Source: Palaeococcus ferrophilus DSM 13482
GTDB lineage: Archaea > Methanobacteriota_B > Thermococci > Thermococcales > Thermococcaceae
Length of the DNA stretch: 64,000 nt
Assembly: GCF_000966265.1 (NCBI RefSeq)
Contig: NZ_LANF01000013.1
Span: 62,001 to 126,000 of the forward strand
Reading direction: 5' to 3'
The position numbers were made by a program, and so were the translations under genes. Below, piece after piece: positions 51,724 through 64,000 of this stretch. Within the stretch, counting starts at the first letter, position 1; every line of letters begins with the position of its first letter. The notes under the pieces are model-generated. The model was not told the DNA's origin. It did not search any database and saw only the letters and a list, made by a program, of their open reading frames with translations.

Positions 51724-54294
51724 ATGGGATTAATAATGGTGTGGGACAAGCAAGATGAGAAAGGAGAACATGCCCCTGAGGAGTACCCTGCTAAAATCAT
51801 TGGGGGGAATATTCCCCCAGCCCCCCTAGCTGAGGGGAAGAGTAATAATCCACTCACATATTCCCCCCAGGGAAAGGGGAATTGGGGAGGCCAGTATTCA
51901 CTAAGGGGGAACTTCCTTAAGGATATGGATTCTTTGAAAAAAGCAATACACAGGGTTGTGCATGTTAGTAAGCAATATGAAATAGTCCCTCTTTTGGTGC
52001 TTTTCCTGCATCCAAACATCAGTAGAGATACTCTCACAGAATTATCAGTAAAGTTGAATCAAGAATTAGGGCTGAACTACAGGTTCAAATCAATCCAAAA
52101 TGGCATATCTTCAGTGCTCAAAAGAGAGGATATTATATTAACTTACAGGGTGAATGGAGTTAATTACTATTCTTTAAACAGTACTATAGAAAATAAAATC
52201 ATAAAAGAATACTCAGAGATAGTATCCGGTGTGAATGATAGTAGGGAGATAGAGGAAATAACTCCTGAGAAGTTAGTGCCAGAAGCTGAAAGTTTTCTCA
52301 TGGGAGTCTACAAAGATGAAATCATCAAGCTACTAACAGAAGACCCATCAAAAGTGTTGACAGTGAAGTATGAGAAAGTATTAGCATTTTCAGACAAACT
52401 TGCAAGGTTAGTAAAGTACAGAACAAAAGAGGCTATGGAAATAACTTTTGCTAAGGCACTAGAAAAAGTAATCCAAGAGCTGAGTGGTGACTTATCAGAT
52501 GAGAGTTCTCATGGCCTAAAAGTAACATTCACTTCTGAAGTGACACATAGAAGGTTGATAGATATAGATGTAAGTAGGGACCTGAACACCCTAATTACAG
52601 TAGAGGCAAAGATAATGGCACTGAGTAGGCCATTGATATTTTACCCAGAATTGGTTTTTGTGTGTAGGGATTGTGGAAATGAAATAATTAGACTCCAGGA
52701 TTTTCTAGTTCCAAGGATTGGGGAAAACAAATGCAGTGCATGTGGTTCAAAGAATCTCTTCATTGACACTTACAAGAGCAAAGGAAAGGAACTTCTGGTA
52801 TTTACCCTTCAAGACCTTCTAGAGAACTTGGAGAGTAATGAGCAGCCTCAGGATTTTCAAGCTTTTACAACACTCAACACCAAGAAGTTGCTTTCTCTTA
52901 TGGGGCAGAAGGTCAAGGTAACTGGCATTGTCAGGACAAAAATCCAGCTTGAATCTGAAAGAGCCACCACTAGTGAGGTTGTCCTTGAAGTCATTAATGT
53001 TCAGGAGACAGAACAAAGAGCCTCATCAAGGCTAACTAAAGAGGATATTGAAAGAATCCTTAATTTTAAAGAGAAATATTCAGAGAAAGAGATAATAGAT
53101 GTTTTAATTGATAGTATTGCCCCCAGTATCTATGCTAACAAAAAAGATACCCCAGAGCTGTGGGCTATTAAAAAATCAGCTCTACTTGCACTTGTCTCCC
53201 CAAAGAAGCTTGTTAATGGTAACCTAAGAAAATGGATTAATATCCTTGTTATTGGTGACAAAGGAACAGGTAAATCTAGGATTCTAGAGGACTTAAAGAG
53301 AATTTTCCATCTAGAACTTGTCACTGGGGGAGGTAGTACAAACCAGGTAGGTCTTATTGGGATGGCAAAATATGATGACATGACAAAAAGATGGGTGTAT
53401 AGGGCAGGAGCTTTGGCAAGGGCAAATGGCACAGTGCTCTTAATTGATGAATTTGACAAATTAAAAGAAGATGATTATAAGGCTCTCCATAATGCTATGA
53501 GTGTTGGTTATTACATTTTCAACAAGGCTGACTTGAACTTAGAAATCATGTCCAGAGAGTCAATAGTGGCAATGGCTAATCCATTAAAAGGAGTAATCTC
53601 AAATCAGAAATCACTCTTTGAGCAGGTTGCCTTCAGCACAACATTACTAGACAGGTTTGACATCATAATTGGCCTCAGAACATATGAATCAAAGGAAGTT
53701 GTGGATAAGATTGATGAGAAAATCTGGGAAGCATCACAGGGGTTAATCAAAAGGCAAGTTGATGATAGATTATTAGTAAAGTACATCACATATGCTCAAA
53801 AGATTGTCCCCACTTGGGAGGACACAGCAAAGCAGAAGCTCTCTGATTTTGTAAAAGAACTGAGAAAATACCTTAAAGAGAATGGAACCTTTAACTATTC
53901 CCATAGGCTACAGATGAGCATGATAAATATTTCAGAAGCTATTGCCAAATTGAAGCTAAAAGAGAGAGTTACTGTAGAGGATGTCCATGAAGCAATTGCG
54001 CTAATAAAAATTGCAGTAAAAAGTTGGGGAGAGGATATTGACTTTTCACTACTGAGTGAATTATCCTATGAGTTTACAGGGGAACAGAGAAGAATGCTTG
54101 ATGCAGTTGAAGAAACTCTTGAAGACCTCAGAAACTACTATCCAAATGGAGTCCCTAGAGATGAGTTGGTGAGTGTCCTTGAGAAAAAGTTGGGTTCAAA
54201 AGATGCCGTGAGAAAGGCACTTACCCTTGCAACAAAAGTTAACCTAATTACAAAGATTTCAGGGGAAAGTTATATTCTCACAAGGGACACTTGA
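51724..54294 (+). CDS. mcm: MCM-family replicative helicase of the element
   Basis: An 856-residue MCM homologue. Residues up to about 300 are poorly recognised; a zinc-binding pair CRDCGNEII and NKCSACGSKN sits near 312-340 within the OB region. The AAA+ domain has VIGDKGTGKSRILEDL near 510 (Walker A), TVLLIDEFDKLKEDD near 570 (Walker B), VAMANPLKG near 617 (sensor 1) and LLDRFDIIIGL near 642 (Arg finger). A winged-helix-like tail closes it. It should unwind the element's own origin. The true start may be 51724 or 51736. Confidence 0.88.
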   Translation: MGLIMVWDKQDEKGEHAPEEYPAKIIGGNIPPAPLAEGKSNNPLTYSPQGKGNWGGQYSLRGNFLKDMDSLKKAIHRVVHVSKQYEIVPLLVLFLHPNISRDTLTELSVKLNQELGLNYRFKSIQNGISSVLKREDIILTYRVNGVNYYSLNSTIENKIIKEYSEIVSGVNDSREIEEITPEKLVPEAESFLMGVYKDEIIKLLTEDPSKVLTVKYEKVLAFSDKLARLVKYRTKEAMEITFAKALEKVIQELSGDLSDESSHGLKVTFTSEVTHRRLIDIDVSRDLNTLITVEAKIMALSRPLIFYPELVFVCRDCGNEIIRLQDFLVPRIGENKCSACGSKNLFIDTYKSKGKELLVFTLQDLLENLESNEQPQDFQAFTTLNTKKLLSLMGQKVKVTGIVRTKIQLESERATTSEVVLEVINVQETEQRASSRLTKEDIERILNFKEKYSEKEIIDVLIDSIAPSIYANKKDTPELWAIKKSALLALVSPKKLVNGNLRKWINILVIGDKGTGKSRILEDLKRIFHLELVTGGGSTNQVGLIGMAKYDDMTKRWVYRAGALARANGTVLLIDEFDKLKEDDYKALHNAMSVGYYIFNKADLNLEIMSRESIVAMANPLKGVISNQKSLFEQVAFSTTLLDRFDIIIGLRTYESKEVVDKIDEKIWEASQGLIKRQVDDRLLVKYITYAQKIVPTWEDTAKQKLSDFVKELRKYLKENGTFNYSHRLQMSMINISEAIAKLKLKERVTVEDVHEAIALIKIAVKSWGEDIDFSLLSELSYEFTGEQRRMLDAVEETLEDLRNYYPNGVPRDELVSVLEKKLGSKDAVRKALTLATKVNLITKISGESYILTRDT

Positions 54295-54331: not shown

Positions 54332-54907
54332 CTATTGGTCTTTTGAGGCCTGTTCCATAAACTCATCTTGGGGAAAGAGGTGTAATATAAACTTGGTTTT
54401 TCTCTTGAAATATTCACCTTCAATATCACTCTTGTCCAAGAGCTCTGTTAATAATTCAAGCTGCTTTTCCACTCCTTTTATTGTTCCTAGAGCATCTTCC
54501 TTGTTTCCTTGTGGAATCAAAAGAAGCAGCTTTAGTTTTAGAGAATGTAGAATTTTGTGAACCCATGAGCATATTGGTTGTGGAACTCCTGAAAAATCCC
54601 ATTCTTCCTCAACACTCCATATTTCCCATTTATCTCCAAATTTCCTGCTTTTGTTGTGTTCTCTAACTATGAGAATCTTTGGTTCCTTGCAGTTTGTGTA
54701 TACAGTAAACTGAAGCCTCTCCTTATGAGTATGGTCTAATGTATCTCTCCCAAGCCTTAGATAACAAATACTCATATTCTTTGGCACTGATACATCATAC
54801 TGATTAGTTCCATCTCCAATTAGGATTAATCTCAAGTTAGCAGGTTCATCCTCAATTACAATATTTGCATAGTCATCTAGAATTACAAAATCTGAATTCT
54901 TGACCAT
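54332..54907 (-). CDS. Element protein, unknown
   Basis: A 191-residue protein: beta-rich first half (SDFVILDDYANIVIEDEP, LRLILIGDGTNQYDVSV), helical second half (GVEKQLELLTELLDKSD). No family recognised and no membrane segment. GGTGATGAC precedes the ATG. The motif TGCCCTAAGTCA lies 30 bases upstream, shared with the gene before it and with MCM, so it probably belongs to the element's core regulon. Confidence 0.7.
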   Translation of the reverse strand: MVKNSDFVILDDYANIVIEDEPANLRLILIGDGTNQYDVSVPKNMSICYLRLGRDTLDHTHKERLQFTVYTNCKEPKILIVREHNKSRKFGDKWEIWSVEEEWDFSGVPQPICSWVHKILHSLKLKLLLLIPQGNKEDALGTIKGVEKQLELLTELLDKSDIEGEYFKRKTKFILHLFPQDEFMEQASKDQ

Positions 54908-55451: not shown

Positions 55452-57002
55452 ATGGAAAAAAGAATTAATAAAGTAGCAGACTTGATAGATAAAGAGCAAT
55501 TAAAAACTTGGCTTTGGGATGCAGCAAATATCCTAAGGAACAGAGTTGATTACATGCCATACATACTAACCCTCTTATTCTACAAGAGATTATCAGATGT
55601 ATATGAAGATGAGTATAAGGAGGTTTATGAGAGGGTCTTTAATCAGATGAAAGAAAAACTTGGAGATGAGAAAGCTAAGAAGATTGCTGAGATTGAAGCT
55701 AAGAAAAAGAGTTGGCATAAGTATCAGATACCAGAAGATTGCCTTTGGGAGAGAGTCAAGAACACTCCTGTAAACATTGGGGAGAAACTAAATGAAGTCC
55801 TCATGAAGATTGAAGAACATAATGAGAGCCTAAGGGGGCTTTTGACTAGAGTAGACTTTAATAGAAAGGATGTTCTCCCAGACCAGAAGTTAAAGCAACT
55901 AATTGACCACTTTGATAGATATAGAATTGGAAAAAATGTCAGCCCTGACCTCCTTGGAGAGGCTTATGAGTATCTTGTTGAGCAGTTTGCTCTTACAAGT
56001 GGGAAGAAGGGTGGAGAATTTTTCACCCCCAAAGAGGTTGTGAAAGTTCTTGTCAGAATCCTTGACCCTAAGGATTATGAAGAGGTTTATGACCCAGCAT
56101 GTGGAACTGGTGGTATGTTGATAACTGCATACTACCACATAAAAGAGAATGGTGGTGACCTAAAGAAGACCAAATTCTATGGACAGGAACTCAATGACAT
56201 GACCTATGTGATAGCCAGAGTTAACATGGTGGTTCATGACATTAAGAATGCTGACATAAGGCAAGGTGATACTTTCCTCAGTCCCCATTTCACAGAGGGT
56301 GGAAGGCTAAAGAAATTTGATGTGGTTCTTGCAAACCCCCCTTGGAATGACAAGAATCTGAAAGGCCTTGAAGAGAACATCAAGAGAGCTCCATTCAGTG
56401 GGGATAGATTTCCCTTTGGAATACCCCCCTTAGGAACCTCAGCTGACTGGCTGTGGATTCAGCATATGCTTGCAAGTGCAAGAGATGACACAGGGAGGGT
56501 AGGGGTAGTAATTGACAATGGTGCCCTCTTCAGAGGAGGGAAAGAGAAAGACATTAGGGCAAAGATTGTGGAAAAGGACTGGATAGATACTATAATTGCA
56601 CTCCCTGAAAAGCTGTTTTATAATACAGGGGCTCCTGGTGTCCTGATAATATTCAGGAAGAACAAGCCTGATAATAGGAAGGGTAAGATACTTTTCATTA
56701 ATGCCAGCCAGGACTATGAAGAAGGCAAGAGACAGAACAAACTTAGGCCTCAAGACATTGATAAGATTGTGGATGCATACAATGACTTCAAAAACATTGA
56801 TGGTTATGCAAGAGTTGTCAGCTTGGAGGAAGTAAGGGAGAATGACTACAACTTGAATGTCACCCTGTATGTGACACCCATAATTGAAAGGGATGAAGTT
56901 GATATAGGGGAAGTATGGAGTAAAATTGAAACTCTTGAAGATGAGAGGGGTTCCCTTAAGGCAAAGATAGAGGAGTACCTTAAGGAGCTCCAGGTGATTT
57001 GA
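55452..57002 (+). CDS. hsdM: Type I restriction-modification methyltransferase subunit
   Basis: A 516-residue N6-adenine methyltransferase. The HsdM N-terminal helical domain (KTWLWDAANILRNRVDY, ILTLLFYKRLSDVYEDEY) is followed by GKKGGEFFTPKEVVKVLVRI, SAM motif I DPACGTGGMLITAYY near 213 and catalytic NPPW near 294. First gene of a seven-gene operon: its stop overlaps the next ATG by one base. No strong ribosome site precedes its ATG; GGTATAATGG near 55376 may be the promoter. It should pair with HsdS (59215) to modify DNA and with HsdR (62355) to cut. Confidence 0.93.
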   Translation: MEKRINKVADLIDKEQLKTWLWDAANILRNRVDYMPYILTLLFYKRLSDVYEDEYKEVYERVFNQMKEKLGDEKAKKIAEIEAKKKSWHKYQIPEDCLWERVKNTPVNIGEKLNEVLMKIEEHNESLRGLLTRVDFNRKDVLPDQKLKQLIDHFDRYRIGKNVSPDLLGEAYEYLVEQFALTSGKKGGEFFTPKEVVKVLVRILDPKDYEEVYDPACGTGGMLITAYYHIKENGGDLKKTKFYGQELNDMTYVIARVNMVVHDIKNADIRQGDTFLSPHFTEGGRLKKFDVVLANPPWNDKNLKGLEENIKRAPFSGDRFPFGIPPLGTSADWLWIQHMLASARDDTGRVGVVIDNGALFRGGKEKDIRAKIVEKDWIDTIIALPEKLFYNTGAPGVLIIFRKNKPDNRKGKILFINASQDYEEGKRQNKLRPQDIDKIVDAYNDFKNIDGYARVVSLEEVRENDYNLNVTLYVTPIIERDEVDIGEVWSKIETLEDERGSLKAKIEEYLKELQVI

Positions 57003-57469
57003 TGGAGATTTTGAATATCATTTTTTCCTTCATTAATTACCTTGCCTCTTTCATTGCATTCATAGTGTGGGGAATTATTGGGGCAGTCAGCTTTGTGGTG
57101 AGCTTGCTGTCCTCAAGGGCATTTATAACATACATCCCTCATCCAGTTGTAGAATTGATAGGCCCTCTAGCTATGTTGTGGGTGGGTGCTGAAGTTGAAG
57201 AGTATTACACTCCAAGGCCTGTGATATTCCTGAATGCTATTGCTATAAATCTGCATTTTCTGGCCCTGGGATGGGATTCCATGTGGGTCAGGCTCTACAT
57301 GAACTTAGGTCTTATTTTTGGGGGGCTTGCATGGTGGTCTTATGAAGAGGAGTTTAGCATGCATTCTACATTTTATGACTGGGCTAAATTGCTTTATGGT
57401 ACTGGTACATGTGGCCTAGTGATACTTATGACATGGGTGTGGGAGCATTTATTTAGTGCAATACCCTAA
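57002..57469 (+). CDS. Small multi-pass membrane protein in the defence operon
   Basis: A 155-residue protein with three to four membrane segments: IIFSFINYLASFIAFIVWGI with VSFVVSLLS, VVELIGPLAMLWVGAEVEE, YMNLGLIFGGLAWW and LVILMTWVWEHL. Short loops, no enzymatic motif, no family recognised. GGTGATTTG precedes the ATG, which overlaps the hsdM stop. It lies just ahead of the KwaA-like gene, so it may be an extra membrane partner of that module. Confidence 0.7.
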   Translation: MEILNIIFSFINYLASFIAFIVWGIIGAVSFVVSLLSSRAFITYIPHPVVELIGPLAMLWVGAEVEEYYTPRPVIFLNAIAINLHFLALGWDSMWVRLYMNLGLIFGGLAWWSYEEEFSMHSTFYDWAKLLYGTGTCGLVILMTWVWEHLFSAIP

Positions 57470-57482
57470 AGGTGGTATTGAG

Positions 57483-58061
57483 ATGGAAGAGAAACCAACA
57501 CTACTCACTAGGCTGTGGCTCTTCCTTAGCTCATACATCCCCCTATGGGTTATACTGCTAATTCAGACATATGATGGGCCAAAAGGATTTCACACAATAT
57601 TTTTTGGTTTGCTCAGTATATTTTCACTGCTATCACTACTTCTCTTTTTAAGAGTGGCAAGACAGAAACTAAATGTTGGTAAGGGTGAGAGGATTTGTGA
57701 TAACTTTATTGTGGTTGATGAATATCAAGATATGAATCATGTGTACTTTGAATACCTGGTTACTTATGTTGTCTCCATGATGTCCTTTATTCCAAAAGAC
57801 CAGGGAATGAGAAATATTTTGACATTTCTGGTGTTCATGCTCATGGTGTTTACTTTTTACCTTAGGGCAAACCTCATCTATGCCAACCCAGTGCTGGGTG
57901 CATTAGGGTATAATCTGTTCAGGGTAAAGAACAGGGAATCAGGTCATTGGGTATTATTAATAACCAGAAAAGATAAAATACTAATTGCAGATAAAACTAA
58001 TCCAGAGAAAATTTGTGTGTCAAGTCTGTCAGGTAACATCTTCCTGGAGGTTGAAGACTGA
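57483..58061 (+). CDS. KwaA-like membrane protein (Kiwa defence)
   Basis: A 192-residue protein with four likely membrane segments (LWLFLSSYIPLWVILLIQ; IFFGLLSIFSLLSLLLFL; FEYLVTYVVSMMSFI; LTFLVFMLMVFTFYL) and a short C-terminal cytoplasmic domain beginning NPVLGALGYNLFRVK. Size, four-segment topology and the NPxLxxLGY segment resemble KwaA of the Kiwa system, and the next gene resembles KwaB. In Kiwa, KwaA senses envelope disturbance during infection. The start at 57483 follows GGTGGTATTGAG. The stop overlaps the next ATG by one base (TGATG). Assignment is by pattern and context. Confidence 0.55.
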   Translation: MEEKPTLLTRLWLFLSSYIPLWVILLIQTYDGPKGFHTIFFGLLSIFSLLSLLLFLRVARQKLNVGKGERICDNFIVVDEYQDMNHVYFEYLVTYVVSMMSFIPKDQGMRNILTFLVFMLMVFTFYLRANLIYANPVLGALGYNLFRVKNRESGHWVLLITRKDKILIADKTNPEKICVSSLSGNIFLEVED

Positions 58062-59218
58062 TGGATGAGCCTGAAAAGAGTAGGGTTCTTGCAAGGGGTC
58101 AAACAATTATAACCCTGAAGAAGTTTCATTCAAAGATTAATGAAGTTGCAGATATGACAGTTGATGTGTACCTTGTGGAGAGTACTGGCAAGAAGGCAAA
58201 AGACCCCAGAACTTGGTTCAGGACTCATAACCTGATTCTTCCCACCAGTTACAGAAGAAAGATTGTAAAGCTGTTTAACCAAAAATTCTTGAGGGTCATT
58301 AACAAGATATCAAAAGATGACACTGACTTCACTAACTTCTTTGATTATAACAGACCATTTTCAGGTGGGGTTGTCAGGTATATTGAACCACAACATATCC
58401 CAGGATTTGAGGTGATATGGAACCAAATAAGACAAGGGGGTTCCAAATCCTCAACATCAGCTAAAGGTGTAAAGTCTATTGTGGGGTATGTTCTTGATAT
58501 ACAGTTTAAAGATGGGGGTAGAGTGGCATTCTTTGTTAAAAATAGGAGGTCATTCATACTCAAGAAGAACAGCATCATGGTGGGGTTGTTTAGAAAACAA
58601 CTGTCACTAGCAACTGATGATTACACTTCTATTCCATTGGCTATTGACTCAATTTATTTTGAGTTCCCAGATACTGATAATGATGGATGGTTACTGGTGT
58701 TGAACACAAGGTATTTTGAATCATTCTTCAAGTACTATGAGCACTACAAACAAATCACCCAAGAAACAATATCAAAACTCAAGGATTCTGGATTCATTGA
58801 GTTTGAAAATGAGGAGAAGGTCATGAAATATGCTCTCAGTACAGTTACAATATTTAGGACACTAACCCAACTACAGAAGAGCAAGTTTTTCAGCTTCATA
58901 ACAGATGATGGAGTTGACACAGGTTCAGAAAGGTACAAAAATTTTGTCAATGACCTGCTAGACCAGCTGGATGTTCTTAGTGCAAAGGAGAGGCCAAACC
59001 TTAAGGTAACTGAAGATGATGACCATATCAGGATTAAGATTGAGGACAAAAAAGGCCTAAAGCAGTTCATAGAAATTTGTCAAAGAAAGTACATGGCAAC
59101 TGTTAGTAGGAGGAGTGGAGTGGTTAGGCTTTATGAGGTAAAAGGTGGAGTGAGGGAACTTAAGCAACTCCCCCTTGATGTATGGTTAAGGACAAAGCCA
59201 CAGGGTGAAACTGCATGA
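58061..59218 (+). CDS. KwaB-like protein (DUF4868-type, Kiwa defence)
   Basis: A 385-residue soluble protein. The central part GYVLDIQFKDGGRVAFFVKN then LVLNTRYFESFFKYYEHYKQ (near 208-227), and the end KQFIEICQRKYMATV then RLYEVKGGVREL, follow the DUF4868 layout of KwaB: a beta-rich body, an FExxFxY segment and a conserved C-terminal tail. KwaB works with KwaA in the Kiwa system to stop phage replication. The ATG overlaps the KwaA-like stop, and the stop overlaps the hsdS start by 4 bases. Longer than typical KwaB; the first 110 residues are unfamiliar. No other family fitted as well. Confidence 0.5.
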   Translation: MDEPEKSRVLARGQTIITLKKFHSKINEVADMTVDVYLVESTGKKAKDPRTWFRTHNLILPTSYRRKIVKLFNQKFLRVINKISKDDTDFTNFFDYNRPFSGGVVRYIEPQHIPGFEVIWNQIRQGGSKSSTSAKGVKSIVGYVLDIQFKDGGRVAFFVKNRRSFILKKNSIMVGLFRKQLSLATDDYTSIPLAIDSIYFEFPDTDNDGWLLVLNTRYFESFFKYYEHYKQITQETISKLKDSGFIEFENEEKVMKYALSTVTIFRTLTQLQKSKFFSFITDDGVDTGSERYKNFVNDLLDQLDVLSAKERPNLKVTEDDDHIRIKIEDKKGLKQFIEICQRKYMATVSRRSGVVRLYEVKGGVRELKQLPLDVWLRTKPQGETA

Positions 59219-60519
59219 GTGATATGTTGGACAAATTTAGGGCTCTACTTGGGGAGGTACCCAAAGAGTGGAAAGTTGTTAAATTGAAAGACATAGCAGA
59301 GACCTTCATTAGTGGGGGTACCCCTTCCACTAAGAATCCTGAATATTGGGGTGGTGATATACCTTGGATTAGAAGTGTTCATATAACAAAGTACTATATT
59401 GATGAATCCTCAATTAAACAGCATATAACAAAGAAAGGATTAGAAAATAGTTCTACAAAAGTTGTCCCAAAGGGTAATGTAATAATAGCTACAAGAGTAG
59501 GAATTGGAAACTCTGCAGTAAACCTGATAGATGTAGCAATTAATCAAGATTTAACTGGAGTAATAATTGATACATCTAAGATAGACCCCTTCTTTTTAGT
59601 GTGGTACCTCCATTTGCCAAGGGTACTCATGCTTTTTGAATTATTTTCAAGAGGTACCACAATAAAAGGAATTCCAAAAAAGCATTTACAAGAACTTTAT
59701 GTCCCTCTCCCATCACTCCCAGAGCAGAAGAAAATAGCTGAAATACTATCCACAATTGACAAGGCCATTGAGAAAACTGATGCCTTAATCCACCATTACC
59801 AGCAACTCAAGAATGCCTTAATGCAGAAGCTGTTCACTGAGGGGATTGGACATACAAGGTTCAAGTCAAGTCCCTTAGGGCAAATTCCTGCTGAGTGGGA
59901 TGTTGTTAAATTTGGTGATATATCAGAGTTCAAAAATGGTATCAACTTCAAGGGAGATTTAAAGGGTGATGTTGGGATTTTAACTATTGATGTATTGAAC
60001 ATGTATGGGGAGGGTATTTACTTAGACATGTCTAATCTATATAGAGTGAACATGGAGGTCAAGGAGAACTATCTCCTTCAGAGAGGTGATATCTTAATTG
60101 TCAGGTCTTCCCTAAAACAAGAGGGAGTTGGATGGGCTTCCATGTTTAATGGATATCATGAACCAGTAACTTTCTGTGGCTTTTTAATTAGAGCTAGAAT
60201 GAAAGAGGGATACAGAGATACAGTACTTCCAGAGTTCTTAGTGTACTATTTGAGAAGTGACATTAGTAGGAGTATGCTAATATCAACTTCTGGTAAAGTT
60301 GCTATCACTAACATAAGCCAAGGATTGCTAAAACAACTCAATATACCACTGCCTCCTCTAGAAGAACAAAAGAAAATAGCCCAGATTCTCATGACTATTG
60401 ATAACAAGATTGAGGCTGAGATAAAAACAAAAGAAGAGCTTGAGAAACTCAAGCAGGGGATGATGGACAAACTTCTCACTGGAAAAGTGAGGGTTAAGGT
60501 GGGTGAGGAAAGTGGATAA
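59215..60519 (+). CDS. hsdS: Type I restriction-modification specificity subunit
   Basis: A 434-residue protein with two target-recognition domains. TRD1 is near 12-160 (VPKEWKVVKLKDIAETFISG at its start), then conserved helix LPSLPEQKKIAEILSTID near 163-180. TRD2 starts near 222 (GQIPAEWDVVKFGDISEF) and ends in LPPLEEQKKIAQILMTID near 379. The half-repeat structure implies a bipartite recognition sequence. It is separated from hsdM by three genes, unlike the usual adjacent hsdM-hsdS order. Overlaps both neighbours. Confidence 0.93.
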   Translation: MSDMLDKFRALLGEVPKEWKVVKLKDIAETFISGGTPSTKNPEYWGGDIPWIRSVHITKYYIDESSIKQHITKKGLENSSTKVVPKGNVIIATRVGIGNSAVNLIDVAINQDLTGVIIDTSKIDPFFLVWYLHLPRVLMLFELFSRGTTIKGIPKKHLQELYVPLPSLPEQKKIAEILSTIDKAIEKTDALIHHYQQLKNALMQKLFTEGIGHTRFKSSPLGQIPAEWDVVKFGDISEFKNGINFKGDLKGDVGILTIDVLNMYGEGIYLDMSNLYRVNMEVKENYLLQRGDILIVRSSLKQEGVGWASMFNGYHEPVTFCGFLIRARMKEGYRDTVLPEFLVYYLRSDISRSMLISTSGKVAITNISQGLLKQLNIPLPPLEEQKKIAQILMTIDNKIEAEIKTKEELEKLKQGMMDKLLTGKVRVKVGEESG

Positions 60520-62368
60520 GCTTGACCCAAAGATGGATAATTTGCTTGAGATATTGAAACAGGCTGAAGATGGTAAATTAGTCCTTCCCCAGTTCCAAAG
60601 AGACTTTGTATGGTCAAGGCAGGACATTAAGGATTTATTGGTTTCACTCCTCAATGGCTACTTTGTGGGCACATTCCTCTTCCTTAGAACAGACCCTACC
60701 CAACCACCATTTAAGTGGAGGCCAATCCAGGGTGTCAGTTTGCCAGTTGATGAAAATGGTAATTATATTGCAGAACCAGAGGCCATGATTCTTGATGGCC
60801 AGCAGAGGATAACATCACTCCACTATGTGTTCTATGCACCACCAAAAGAAGTTGTCACCCCAAAGTACACCAGCAGGAGATACCTCTTCTTCTTGAGGCT
60901 TGAAGAATTGGAAAAGGGTAATGTTGAGGATGCTGTGTTCAGTGTGAATGAAGATGATGCTAGGAAGTACTTGGACAAAAACTATCAGTTTGAGCACAAA
61001 ATAGTTCCATTCACAGAGCTTTCTAACAAAGAAAAGTGGGAAGATTGGGTAGAGGAATTCATAGAGTATCATGTTGACAAATACATAGAGGAGAACATTG
61101 GTGAAGATGTTAGCTTTAAACAGGGTAGAGAACTGACTCAAGAGTACAAGAGGCAACTTAAGGCAAAGGCAGACCGCTGGGAGAAGTACATTAACAATCT
61201 CCTAGAGTTCAAGGTTCCAGTCCTTTACTTACCAAAAATTGAACCAGACAATAAACAAAAACTTGGTGAGGTCTGCACAATATTTGAGAAGATGAACAGC
61301 ACTGGAGTTAGGTTATCAGTCTTTGACCTCTTGACTGCTAGGCTGTATAAAGATGATATTGACCTTCATAAAATATGGCAGGACACTGTTGATTCATTTG
61401 AGGGTATCAGAAAGTTGTCTGAGGACAACCCAGACCTCTTTAAAGTGTTGCTACTCAGGGCACTAGGCCTTATGAGAGTGCTCAGGGACAGGGATAAGGA
61501 CAAGGGTGAGAAGGAGATTAGTGATGTTAAAAATAGGTCTTTAATTAATTTGTCACCAGTGGATTTTGAGTCAGATTGGTGGATTATGGCAAGGTATTTT
61601 GATAGAGCCATTGAGAGAGTTATGAGTACCAATCAAGATGGGTTTGGGGCATTCCTGCCAAAGTGGGTTCCTTACAAACCCATGCTCCCAGTTTTGGCAA
61701 CACTCCTCTACTATGTGGAGGGTACTAAAGAGTTATCACCAATAGAAAAGAGCAAGGCTTACACACTAATAAAGCAGTGGTACTGGAGTTCAGTATTCAC
61801 TGAGAGGTACAGCAGTGCTGTTGAGTCTAAGTCTTTGAGTGATACACTAGAGTTAATAAAGGCTTTCAAAGAGCCTGAATTCCTACCCTCAATGATTACT
61901 GAGGCAAGGACTAGAATTACCTCACTAAACTTACACACAGTCTCAAGAAGTGGAAGTGCAATTTACAGAGGCATTATGAACTTAATTGCATTGAACCATG
62001 CAAGGGACTTTCTCCAAGTTGATGCCATAGAATTCCATAACCTAGAAGACCACCACATATTCCCCCAGGCCTTCCTAAGGAGGCAAGGTTTTGGAGACAA
62101 AGACAAATCCAAGATTAATACCATACTTAATAGAACCCTCATCACTGATGAAACCAACAGGAAGATTTCAGCAACATCACCAAAAGAGTACATTAAATGG
62201 ATTCCTGGTGATTTGGAAGAGGTTCTCAAGCCTCACTTTATTGATTCTGGGTGCATTGATGCTATGAAAGAGAACAATTATGAGAAGTTCCTGGAAAGGA
62301 GGAGGATGCTTATTTTAAACAAAGTGCAAGAACTTATAGGTGGGGGAGGGGAGGATGTCAACTCCTGA
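60512..62368 (+). CDS. DUF262-DUF1524 nuclease (GmrSD/SspE-like)
   Basis: A 618-residue protein. The N-terminal DUF262 domain shows LVLPQFQRDFVWSRQDIKDL near 24-43 and AMILDGQQRITSLHYVF near 90-106, where DGQQR binds and hydrolyses NTP. The C-terminal DUF1524 domain carries the His-Me finger: HNLEDHHIFPQAFLRR near 508 and NRTLITDETNRKISATSP near 540. In GmrSD (type IV restriction) and SspE the same fusion senses modified DNA and cleaves it. The GTG at 60512 fits GGTGAGGAAA. It overlaps hsdS by 8 bases and hsdR by 14. Confidence 0.85.
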   Translation: MDKLDPKMDNLLEILKQAEDGKLVLPQFQRDFVWSRQDIKDLLVSLLNGYFVGTFLFLRTDPTQPPFKWRPIQGVSLPVDENGNYIAEPEAMILDGQQRITSLHYVFYAPPKEVVTPKYTSRRYLFFLRLEELEKGNVEDAVFSVNEDDARKYLDKNYQFEHKIVPFTELSNKEKWEDWVEEFIEYHVDKYIEENIGEDVSFKQGRELTQEYKRQLKAKADRWEKYINNLLEFKVPVLYLPKIEPDNKQKLGEVCTIFEKMNSTGVRLSVFDLLTARLYKDDIDLHKIWQDTVDSFEGIRKLSEDNPDLFKVLLLRALGLMRVLRDRDKDKGEKEISDVKNRSLINLSPVDFESDWWIMARYFDRAIERVMSTNQDGFGAFLPKWVPYKPMLPVLATLLYYVEGTKELSPIEKSKAYTLIKQWYWSSVFTERYSSAVESKSLSDTLELIKAFKEPEFLPSMITEARTRITSLNLHTVSRSGSAIYRGIMNLIALNHARDFLQVDAIEFHNLEDHHIFPQAFLRRQGFGDKDKSKINTILNRTLITDETNRKISATSPKEYIKWIPGDLEEVLKPHFIDSGCIDAMKENNYEKFLERRRMLILNKVQELIGGGGEDVNS

Positions 62369-64000
62369 AGAGAGGATATCTGAGTATCCATTTATCAATA
62401 TCCTGTCCAGGGAACTCGGCTGGGAGTATGTGCCTCCTTCAGAATTAAAGAAGGAGAGGGACTACAACTCAGCTCTTCTTAAAGACAGACTAATGAGGAC
62501 CCTCCTTAGGATAAATGCTGGGAAGATATCTGAGGAAGATGCAGAGCAGATAATTAAAAAGCTGGAGTATCTCCCCCACACTATAGAAGGGAACAGGGAG
62601 TTTCTGGAGATTTTGAAGAATGGTCTTTCTTTCAAACCCAAAGGTTCAAAGTTCCACAGAACAATATGGTTAATTGATTATAAGAATCTTGGGAATAATG
62701 AGTTCTTGGTAACTAGGCAGTTCTATATTAAAGAGGGTGAGAATAGGAGAAGGCCAGACATTGTTCTGTTCATTAATGGAATTCCAGTTGTGGTGATTGA
62801 GGTCAAAAGCCCTACTACTGAAAGTGAAACCCTTGAAGTTGCATACCAGCAGATAAAAGATTATGAATCTGCTGTTCCCAAGCTGTTTGTTTTTAATCAA
62901 TTCAACATCATCTCAGATTGGACTGAGGTTCTTTATGCTCCAACCTTTTCAGATGCCCCCTTGGACATGTGGGGAAGATGGAAAGACCCCTATCCTCACA
63001 AGCTTGATGTGACTTATTATGAAGACCCCATTAAAGTGACTGCATATGGTATGCTGTCAAAGGAGAACCTGATTGACCTAATTAGAAATTTCATATTCTT
63101 TAGGCATGAGAAAAATAAGCTTGTAAAGATTATATCTAGGTACATGCAGTTCAGAGCAACAAATAAAATCCATGACAGGATTCTCAGGACTTATCTTGGT
63201 GAGGGCAACAAAAAGACTGGACTTATATGGCACACCCAAGGTTCAGGAAAAAGTTTGACCATGTTTTTCACAGCTTGGAAACTATACAGGACAGAAGAGC
63301 TTGACAATCCAACCATTGTCATAGTGGTTGACAGAGATAATTTGGAACAACAAATGTTTGAGACATTCCAAAAGCACAAGTTCAATGTTAAGAGAGCCTC
63401 CTCAATACCAAAATTAATTGAGATGCTATACAATAATGAGAGAGGCATAATACTAACTACTGTTCAAAAGTTCCAAGAGCCTAGAGAATCAGAGGATAAG
63501 GAGAGAACAAGGAGATACAGAGAGATGTTTGAAGCCTTGAAGAGTGGAAACCACCCAGTAAACAAGAGGCAGAATGTTATAATTCTAACTGATGAGAGCC
63601 ACAGGAGCCAGTATGGTGTGTTGGCTATAAACATGAGGGCCATGCTTTCCAATGCATTCATCTTTGGTTTTACTGGTACACCAATAGCAAAGGATGAGAG
63701 GAACACCTTTGAAAAATTCAACCCTCCAGGGGAATTATATTTGGACAGGTATTCTATTGAGGAGTCAATAAGGGATGGGTTTACAGTCCCAATTTATTAC
63801 CAGTATAAGGGAGTCAAATATAAGGTGGACAAGGAGTTAGCTGACAAGTTATTTGAATCAGAGTTCTGGATGCTAGATGAAGAGACAAAGAAGAAACTCC
63901 AAAAGAAAGTTGACAGGAGGCTCCTACTTAAGCTCAGGAAAAGGATTGAGCTTGTTGCTAAGGATATTGCAGAGCACTACCAAAAATACATAGAACCATT
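62355..64000 (+). CDS. hsdR: Type I restriction endonuclease subunit (partial, runs off window)
   Basis: 548 codons are visible without a stop. The N-terminal PD-(D/E)xK nuclease is RRPDIVLFINGIPVVVIEVK near 132-151. The superfamily 2 motor follows with LIWHTQGSGKSLTMFFTAW near 293 (Walker A), IVIVVDRDNLEQQMFETF near 320, LTDESHRSQYGVLA near 412 (DExH box) and FGFTGTPIAKDERNTF near 437. ATG at 62355 after GGGGAGG, inside the end of the DUF262 gene. It completes a type I restriction system with hsdM and hsdS. Confidence 0.92.
   Translation, partial: MSTPEERISEYPFINILSRELGWEYVPPSELKKERDYNSALLKDRLMRTLLRINAGKISEEDAEQIIKKLEYLPHTIEGNREFLEILKNGLSFKPKGSKFHRTIWLIDYKNLGNNEFLVTRQFYIKEGENRRRPDIVLFINGIPVVVIEVKSPTTESETLEVAYQQIKDYESAVPKLFVFNQFNIISDWTEVLYAPTFSDAPLDMWGRWKDPYPHKLDVTYYEDPIKVTAYGMLSKENLIDLIRNFIFFRHEKNKLVKIISRYMQFRATNKIHDRILRTYLGEGNKKTGLIWHTQGSGKSLTMFFTAWKLYRTEELDNPTIVIVVDRDNLEQQMFETFQKHKFNVKRASSIPKLIEMLYNNERGIILTTVQKFQEPRESEDKERTRRYREMFEALKSGNHPVNKRQNVIILTDESHRSQYGVLAINMRAMLSNAFIFGFTGTPIAKDERNTFEKFNPPGELYLDRYSIEESIRDGFTVPIYYQYKGVKYKVDKELADKLFESEFWMLDEETKKKLQKKVDRRLLLKLRKRIELVAKDIAEHYQKYIEP

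What the first reader, a model, noticed from the sequence alone, without database searches (positions are those of the whole stretch)
55452..64000. Composite defence operon: Kiwa-like module and DUF262 nuclease nested inside a type I restriction system
The gene order is hsdM, small membrane protein, KwaA-like, KwaB-like, hsdS, DUF262-DUF1524 nuclease, hsdR. Nearly every junction overlaps by 1 to 14 bases or is within 13 bases, so the seven products are made from one message in coupled fashion. Kiwa (membrane sensor plus DUF4868 effector), type I RM (cuts unmodified DNA) and GmrSD/SspE-like enzymes (cut modified DNA) are each known alone. Inserting the first between hsdM and hsdS and the last between hsdS and hsdR suggests a joint system covering both modified and unmodified invaders, with a membrane alarm. 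The Kiwa identity is inferred from size, topology, motifs and pairing.
Basis: partly seen in the sequence, partly recalled or inferred. Interest (0 to 1): 0.92.

Follow-up and report, generated by a model that had tools for sequence, protein, structure and literature searches.

The report
Kiwa module inside restriction operon
An archaeal restriction-modification operon has two slots where other antiviral modules plug in; here one slot holds the membrane defence Kiwa and the other a nuclease of the family that attacks modified DNA, and the whole set moves between species on a small integrating element.

Summary
The gene order hsdM – membrane protein – KwaA – KwaB – hsdS – GmrSD – hsdR is real, intact and tightly coupled (junctions -17 to +13 nt); an eighth gene, a YgjP metallopeptidase, overlaps the hsdR end. 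KwaA and KwaB are confirmed by profile evidence. Two other genomes carry the order: one nearly identical, one separated by saturating dS with dN/dS 0.05-0.11 on KwaA, KwaB and GmrSD. Related type I loci in the same archaeal family are not plain hsdMSR either: they carry different cargo in the same two slots, and no cargo family crosses slots. Best reading: a type I RM "chassis" with two plug-in positions, here loaded with Kiwa (hsdM-hsdS) and GmrSD (hsdS-hsdR). The 17-kb integrase–MCM–operon unit is integrated at the C/D-box sRNA gene sR23, with 15-bp att repeats and empty sites in two congeners. GmrSD or DarTG inside type I loci is known (TgvAB, RloF, RRDM); I found no report of Kiwa in one, or of both slots filled in archaea. 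Layered, co-expressed but independent action is the likeliest mechanism; a joint "alarm" complex is untested. New variant of a known kind.

The parts
55452..57002 (+). hsdM, N6-adenine methyltransferase subunit of type I RM (DPACGTGG and NPPW motifs intact)
   Evidence: TIGR00497 244.4 bits over cut-off; PF02384 367.8 bits; motifs
57002..57469 (+). Small membrane protein (TMP), start of slot-1 cargo; no named family; 32-35% identical homologues lie in slot 1 of four other type I loci, directly before hsdS in three; absent in the G048 copy
   Evidence: (no family)
57483..58061 (+). KwaA, Kiwa membrane sensor (ATG start 57483; a GTG at 57456 is also possible)
   Evidence: PADLOC KwaA 2e-18; NF041622 63.6 bits, cut-off 100; PDB 9mrg 1.4e-4; hhalign 99.3% E=2.8e-20
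58061..59218 (+). KwaB-like DUF4868 protein, predicted Kiwa DNA-binding effector; divergent, 385 aa
   Evidence: PF16162 28.9 bits over 26.3 cut-off; hhalign 96.4%; canonical set matches solved KwaB 9mrx 3.8e-15
59215..60519 (+). hsdS, two-TRD specificity subunit; second TRD (about 59923-60343) replaced between G000 and G036
   Evidence: PF01420 169.2 bits; alignment break
60503..62368 (+). GmrSD-family (DUF262-DUF1524) nuclease, slot-2 cargo; DGQQR, FEKMN, HHIFP and NRTLI motifs intact
   Evidence: PF03235 113.6 bits, PF07510 21.5 bits (cut-off 23); DUF262 structure 7p9k 5.3e-9; motifs
62355..64000 (+). hsdR, first part; the gene runs on to position 65375 in window numbering (1006 aa from ATG 62355)
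   Evidence: TIGR00348 453 bits, PF04313, PF18766; full length in L002
54950..55285 (-). Divergent 111-aa gene upstream of hsdM, conserved at the same place in G036 and G048; looks like a ribbon-helix-helix regulator by eye, no family hit over cut-off
51724..54294 (+). MCM-family helicase of the integrated element
   Evidence: PF00493 146.7 bits
49521..51665 (+). Tyrosine integrase of the element, start codon inside attL
   Evidence: PF00589 56.3 bits
49517..49531 (+). attL TGGGATGATGAGTCT; attR is the same 15 bp at 66402-66416 (window numbering, outside window), restoring an intact sR23 gene

Best explanation
A type I restriction-modification operon that serves as a chassis for plug-in defence modules at two fixed positions, carried on an integrative element. 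HsdM2S methylates host sites, and with HsdR it cuts unmethylated invading DNA. The module between hsdM and hsdS is a Kiwa pair: KwaA in the membrane senses virus entry and KwaB binds the incoming DNA and blocks its replication. The module between hsdS and hsdR is a GmrSD enzyme that cuts DNA whose base modification evades the type I enzyme. One coupled message makes the layers together, but each layer recognises its own trigger; modules are probably swapped between loci by recombination in the conserved hsd genes. Shown: gene identities, intact motifs, order conserved under purifying selection, slot-faithful cargo variation, integration and horizontal transfer. Inferred: KwaA/KwaB and GmrSD activities (from characterised homologues), single transcript, independence of the layers, the swapping route.
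For: Gene identities: negative control 87. Order in G036 (hsdM 100, KwaA 99.5, KwaB 98.7, GmrSD 99.4% aa) and G048 (91, 85, 86, 91%) with dN/dS KwaA 0.106, KwaB 0.070, GmrSD 0.051, hsdM 0.042, hsdR 0.043. Related type I loci in the family show hsdM-[cargo]-hsdS-[cargo]-hsdR-YgjP with other cargo: PIN, PIN+AF2212-like, nucleotidyltransferase, HEPN/DUF4145-like, membrane proteins. Thirteen cargo families, 36 proteins, never cross slots (0 of 200,000 label shuffles), and slot-1 and slot-2 families occur in different combinations. hsdS TRD2 differs between G000 and G036 while everything around it is 98-99% identical. Element bounds and empty sites. Published parallels: TgvAB, two genes embedded in a type I operon that protect when expressed as tgvAB alone; RloF between hsdS and hsdR; DarTG2 between hsdS and hsdR in an island with an M48 metallopeptidase.
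Against: No expression or phenotype data. GmrSD_C scores below its Pfam cut-off (21.5 of 23) although its motifs are intact. The NCBIfam KwaA equivalog cut-off is not met, so functional equivalence with E. coli KwaA is not assured. The slot shuffle test ignores shared ancestry of loci. The small membrane protein is unexplained and missing from G048. The genes have stayed together over saturating dS, which also fits a more interdependent system. TgvAB alone protected 10- to 100-fold less against several phages than the fuller construct, a hint that embedding can matter.
Confidence: 0.66

Rival explanations
1. Guard model: the cargo modules are kept inactive by the type I complex and fire when a virus inhibits or depletes it, as PrrC does for EcoPrrI.
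For: PrrC is embedded in a type IC locus and triggered by the anti-restriction peptide Stp (PMC12707154). Several slot cargos in relatives are toxin-like: PIN, PIN+AF2212-like, nucleotidyltransferase, HEPN-like. Slot fidelity could reflect contact with the neighbouring Hsd subunit.
Against: Kiwa and GmrSD relatives work without a type I enzyme. Solitary KwaA-KwaB pairs exist, e.g. G021, and archaeal Kiwa also sits next to other methyltransferase systems.
Confidence: 0.15
2. Physically joint system: KwaB and/or GmrSD form complexes with HsdM/HsdS so that methylation status directs the membrane response.
For: Order kept under strong purifying selection across genera; translational coupling. A Kiwa pair follows a methyltransferase gene directly in G038 (6 nt gap), lies beside pglX inside BREX-5 in Halobacterium, and lies downstream of an Eco57I-like methylase in Kocuria.
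Against: No fusion or interface evidence; cargo families occur with different hsdS alleles and partners; hsdS TRD2 was swapped with almost no change in KwaB.
Confidence: 0.12
3. Passive nesting: modules entered a tolerant, often exchanged locus and travel together without functional benefit from position.
For: Defence genes cluster in islands; the whole unit is mobile.
Against: Slot purity 13 of 13 families, overlapping reading frames throughout, conserved order at saturating dS. Decayed copies exist (G097, G077, G083), so unselected loci do break up.
Confidence: 0.07

Closest known systems
TgvAB embedded in the Vibrio cholerae VPI-2 type I RM operon (PMC11411939)
   Same: GmrSD-family genes inside a type I operon, with the same explanation (modified and unmodified DNA both covered)
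   Different: Two-protein TgvAB; no Kiwa; one slot filled; bacterium
RRDM island of EPEC: RptR, type I RM with DarTG2 between hsdS and hsdR, M48 metallopeptidase (PMC12255303)
   Same: Type I operon with cargo between hsdS and hsdR, a metallopeptidase gene with the RM genes, a small upstream regulator gene
   Different: Cargo is DarTG2; nothing reported between hsdM and hsdS; here the upstream gene is divergent and not shown to be RptR-like
RloF of Campylobacter jejuni type I loci (Miller 2005, cited in PMC4619093)
   Same: DUF262 protein between hsdS and hsdR, the same slot as GmrSD here
   Different: No Kiwa reported
Kiwa (KwaA-KwaB), Zhang et al. Cell 2025 as summarised in PMC12904381
   Same: KwaA membrane protein paired with KwaB, adjacent genes (1-nt overlap here)
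   Different: Kiwa is described as a two-component system; here it is preceded by an extra membrane protein and nested in RM; KwaB is longer and divergent
PrrC in EcoPrrI (reviewed in PMC12707154)
   Same: Effector gene embedded in a type I operon
   Different: Anticodon nuclease triggered by RM inhibition; unrelated protein

Membership tests
Kiwa | KwaA membrane protein homologous to known KwaA | tested here: met
   PADLOC 2e-18, PDB KwaA 1.4e-4, hhalign 99.3%; the NCBIfam equivalog cut-off (100) is not reached at 63.6
Kiwa | KwaB with DUF4868/PF16162 domain | tested here: met
   28.9 bits over 26.3; hhalign 96.4%; control 0.3%. PADLOC KwaB models give no hit: divergent member
Kiwa | kwaA and kwaB adjacent | tested here: met
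Kiwa | KwaB fold and DNA binding, KwaA tetramer with KwaB dimers | tested here: inconclusive
   AlphaFold model poor, mean pLDDT 39, not used for fold search; binding not testable
Type I RM | HsdM, HsdS with two TRDs, HsdR with nuclease motif D..EVK and SF2 motor | tested here: met
Type I RM | Sequence-specific methylation and restriction | not testable with these tools
   needs methylome and transformation assays
GmrSD type IV nucleases | DUF262 with DGQQR and FxxxN, DUF1524 with HHxxP and downstream N | tested here: met
   PF03235 113.6 bits; PF07510 just under cut-off; motifs DGQQR, FEKMN, HHIFP, NRTLI
GmrSD type IV nucleases | Cuts modified DNA only | not testable with these tools
   biochemistry needed; some DUF262-DUF1524 proteins, such as SspE, instead respond to phosphorothioate

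The most novel reading that the evidence does not exclude
Position in the type I operon is functional: cargo in each slot docks on the neighbouring Hsd subunit, so that a methylation-aware RM complex and the Kiwa membrane module form one coupled immune machine whose effectors are exchanged like cartridges across archaea.
Probability: 0.13. Interest if true: 0.9.

Novelty: new variant of a known kind. Interest (0 to 1): 0.63.

Why it matters
It turns scattered reports of genes embedded in type I operons into a testable rule: two fixed cargo positions with position-specific families, in archaea. It adds Kiwa as cargo, and it points to about a dozen mostly unnamed cargo families in Thermococcales-type archaea as candidate antiviral systems. 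The mobile 17-kb unit shows how such a set spreads.

Tried and rejected
AlphaFold of KwaB gave mean pLDDT 39, so no Foldseek search was run; profile-profile comparison with a negative control was used instead. Scans for KwaA in viral contigs and KwaB in plasmids found nothing; a five-sequence KwaA alignment was too diverse for a contig scan, and a three-sequence one found two bacterial loci only. Search by taxon outside the window's own phylum was not possible, so conservation beyond 115 genomes is untested. The idea that the order is unique to this genome was rejected. The idea that the G048 element also entered a C/D sRNA gene (sR43 nearby) was not supported: no att repeat found. The solved-structure matches of KwaB by single-sequence search were chance. 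The primary Kiwa paper (Cell 2025) is not held, so its context analysis could not be checked.

Full report
WHAT IS THERE. hsdM 55452-57002 (TIGR00497 over cut-off), hsdS 59215-60519 and hsdR 62355-65375 are plain type I RM genes with intact motifs. 57002-57469 is a small membrane protein with no family hit. 57483-58061 is KwaA: PADLOC E=2e-18, solved KwaA 9mrg E=1.4e-4, hhalign against six other KwaAs 99.3%. 58061-59218 is a divergent KwaB: PF16162 28.9 bits over the 26.3 cut-off, hhalign against seven KwaBs 96.4%, E=1.1e-9 over 284 columns, while the control comparison with KwaA gives 0.3%. The comparison set itself matches the solved KwaB 9mrx at 3.8e-15. 60503-62368 is a GmrSD nuclease: PF03235 113.6 bits, all DUF262 and HNH motifs present, nearest structure 7p9k, a DUF262 protein that I recognise from memory as BrxU. 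Junctions are -1, +13, -1, -4, -17, -14 nt, and a YgjP metallopeptidase gene overlaps the hsdR end by 10.

IS IT CONSERVED. Among 115 genomes of the class, two others carry the same order. G036 is nearly identical except hsdS (76%). G048 is 79-92% identical in the shared non-hsdS genes and lacks the small membrane protein. Between G000 and G048 dS is near saturation (0.7-1.2 outside hsdS) and dN/dS is 0.106 for KwaA, 0.070 for KwaB, 0.051 for GmrSD, 0.042 for hsdM and 0.043 for hsdR: the cargo is constrained much as the RM core is. Against G036 the DNA alignment within the operon breaks only over the second TRD of hsdS (59923-60343), so specificity was exchanged while the cargo stayed. Degraded relics of the GmrSD part exist in G097, G077 and G083.

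THE TWO-SLOT PATTERN. Its homologues in four other type I loci sit between hsdM and hsdS, directly before hsdS in three of them. I therefore read 16 loci whose HsdM is about 50% identical. Where hsdS is visible, 13 of 14 have at least one gene between hsdM and hsdS, and most have further genes between hsdS and hsdR; where the 3' end is visible, a YgjP gene closes the operon. The cargo differs from locus to locus. Clustering gives 13 families with at least two members (36 proteins, the window's membrane protein included), and every family is confined to one slot; 200,000 label shuffles never reach this (the test ignores shared ancestry). Slot-1 and slot-2 families occur in several different combinations, so the slots appear to be exchanged separately. 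Named cargo: PIN domains, PIN with an AF2212-like partner, nucleotidyltransferase with a small partner, DUF4145/HEPN-like proteins; many have no family. In this picture Kiwa is the slot-1 load and GmrSD the slot-2 load of one locus.

THE CARRIER. In the congeners G022 and G023 the flanking genes are joined without the operon; in G000 the inserted stretch is about 49517-66416, 17 kb: integrase, MCM helicase, two small genes, the operon, YgjP. A 15-bp repeat TGGGATGATGAGTCT marks both ends, and one copy (with one mismatch, TGGAATGATGAGTCT) occurs in each empty site. attR restores an intact C/D-box sRNA gene, sR23 (Rfam RF01138, 72.3 bits; also at the empty sites); the att core contains its C box. 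G036 has the same element at the same place at 98-99% identity, although the host flank beyond it is only 84% identical: recent transfer across genera. The review of archaeal tyrosine recombinases that I could search does not contain the words snoRNA or sRNA, so this target may be undescribed; I did not establish that.

KIWA ELSEWHERE. In G038 a Kiwa pair follows a type IIG-like methyltransferase gene after 6 nt, with a PLD-SNF2 helicase further on. In Halobacterium BOL4-2 it lies, on the opposite strand, inside a BREX-5 cluster beside pglX; in Halomarina beside BREX-5. In G021 it stands alone. So archaeal Kiwa often sits with methylation-based systems, but not always. This is a handful of loci, not a statistic.

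MECHANISM. Kiwa is reported to sense infection at the membrane through KwaA and to bind injected DNA through KwaB without cutting it (PMC12904381). GmrSD enzymes cut modified DNA (PMC4619093, PMC12707154). With type I RM this gives three triggers in one message. I hold layered, co-expressed and largely independent action most likely, because each cargo kind works alone elsewhere and cargo is exchanged. Slot fidelity is the observation this model explains least well; it leaves room for docking or guard models.

COMPARISON. Known: RloF between hsdS and hsdR, TgvAB in a type I operon, DarTG2 between hsdS and hsdR in an island with a metallopeptidase, PrrC. I found no report of Kiwa in a type I operon or of both slots filled in archaea; the searches covered open PMC text only. 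The REBASE-based survey of archaeal RM does not discuss such cargo in the passages found. Verdict: real, intact, conserved; a new variant of a known kind.

Noticed in passing
window 49517-66416 (attR outside window, L002 12402-12416): A 17-kb element with integrase and MCM helicase is integrated at the 5' end of the C/D-box sRNA gene sR23; the 15-bp att core includes the C box and the integrase start codon, and attR rebuilds the sRNA gene. Integration into a C/D sRNA gene rather than a tRNA gene looks unusual.
   Followed up: partly
L086-L100 (type I loci of G022, G033, G036, G040, G043, G053, G054, G072, G075, G078, G083, G089, G103, G105, G107): About a dozen slot-specific cargo families, many without names in Pfam or PADLOC, including 4-5 TM proteins and 400-760 aa proteins, inside type I RM operons: candidate antiviral modules.
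   Followed up: partly
L012 3577-9163 (G038): KwaA-KwaB directly behind a type IIG/PglX-like methyltransferase gene (6 nt gap), followed by unknown genes and a PLD-SNF2 helicase.
   Followed up: partly
L110 12349-13928 (Halobacterium sp. BOL4-2 plasmid): Kiwa pair nested on the opposite strand inside a BREX-5 cluster, between pglX and a NucS-domain nuclease gene.
   Followed up: partly
L013 8553-9878 (G021): KwaB with a C-terminal extension of about 100 residues that looks like a PKD/Ig-like repeat (WDWGDGST motif by eye); not searched.
   Followed up: no
window numbering 66706-72189 (L002 12706-18189): A second insertion beside the element in G000 only: TasA/SipW-like secreted proteins and a signal peptidase by eye; absent at this place in G036, G022 and G023.
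   Followed up: no
window 54332-54907: 191-aa minus-strand gene of the element with no family hit, also in G036, not seen in G048.
   Followed up: no
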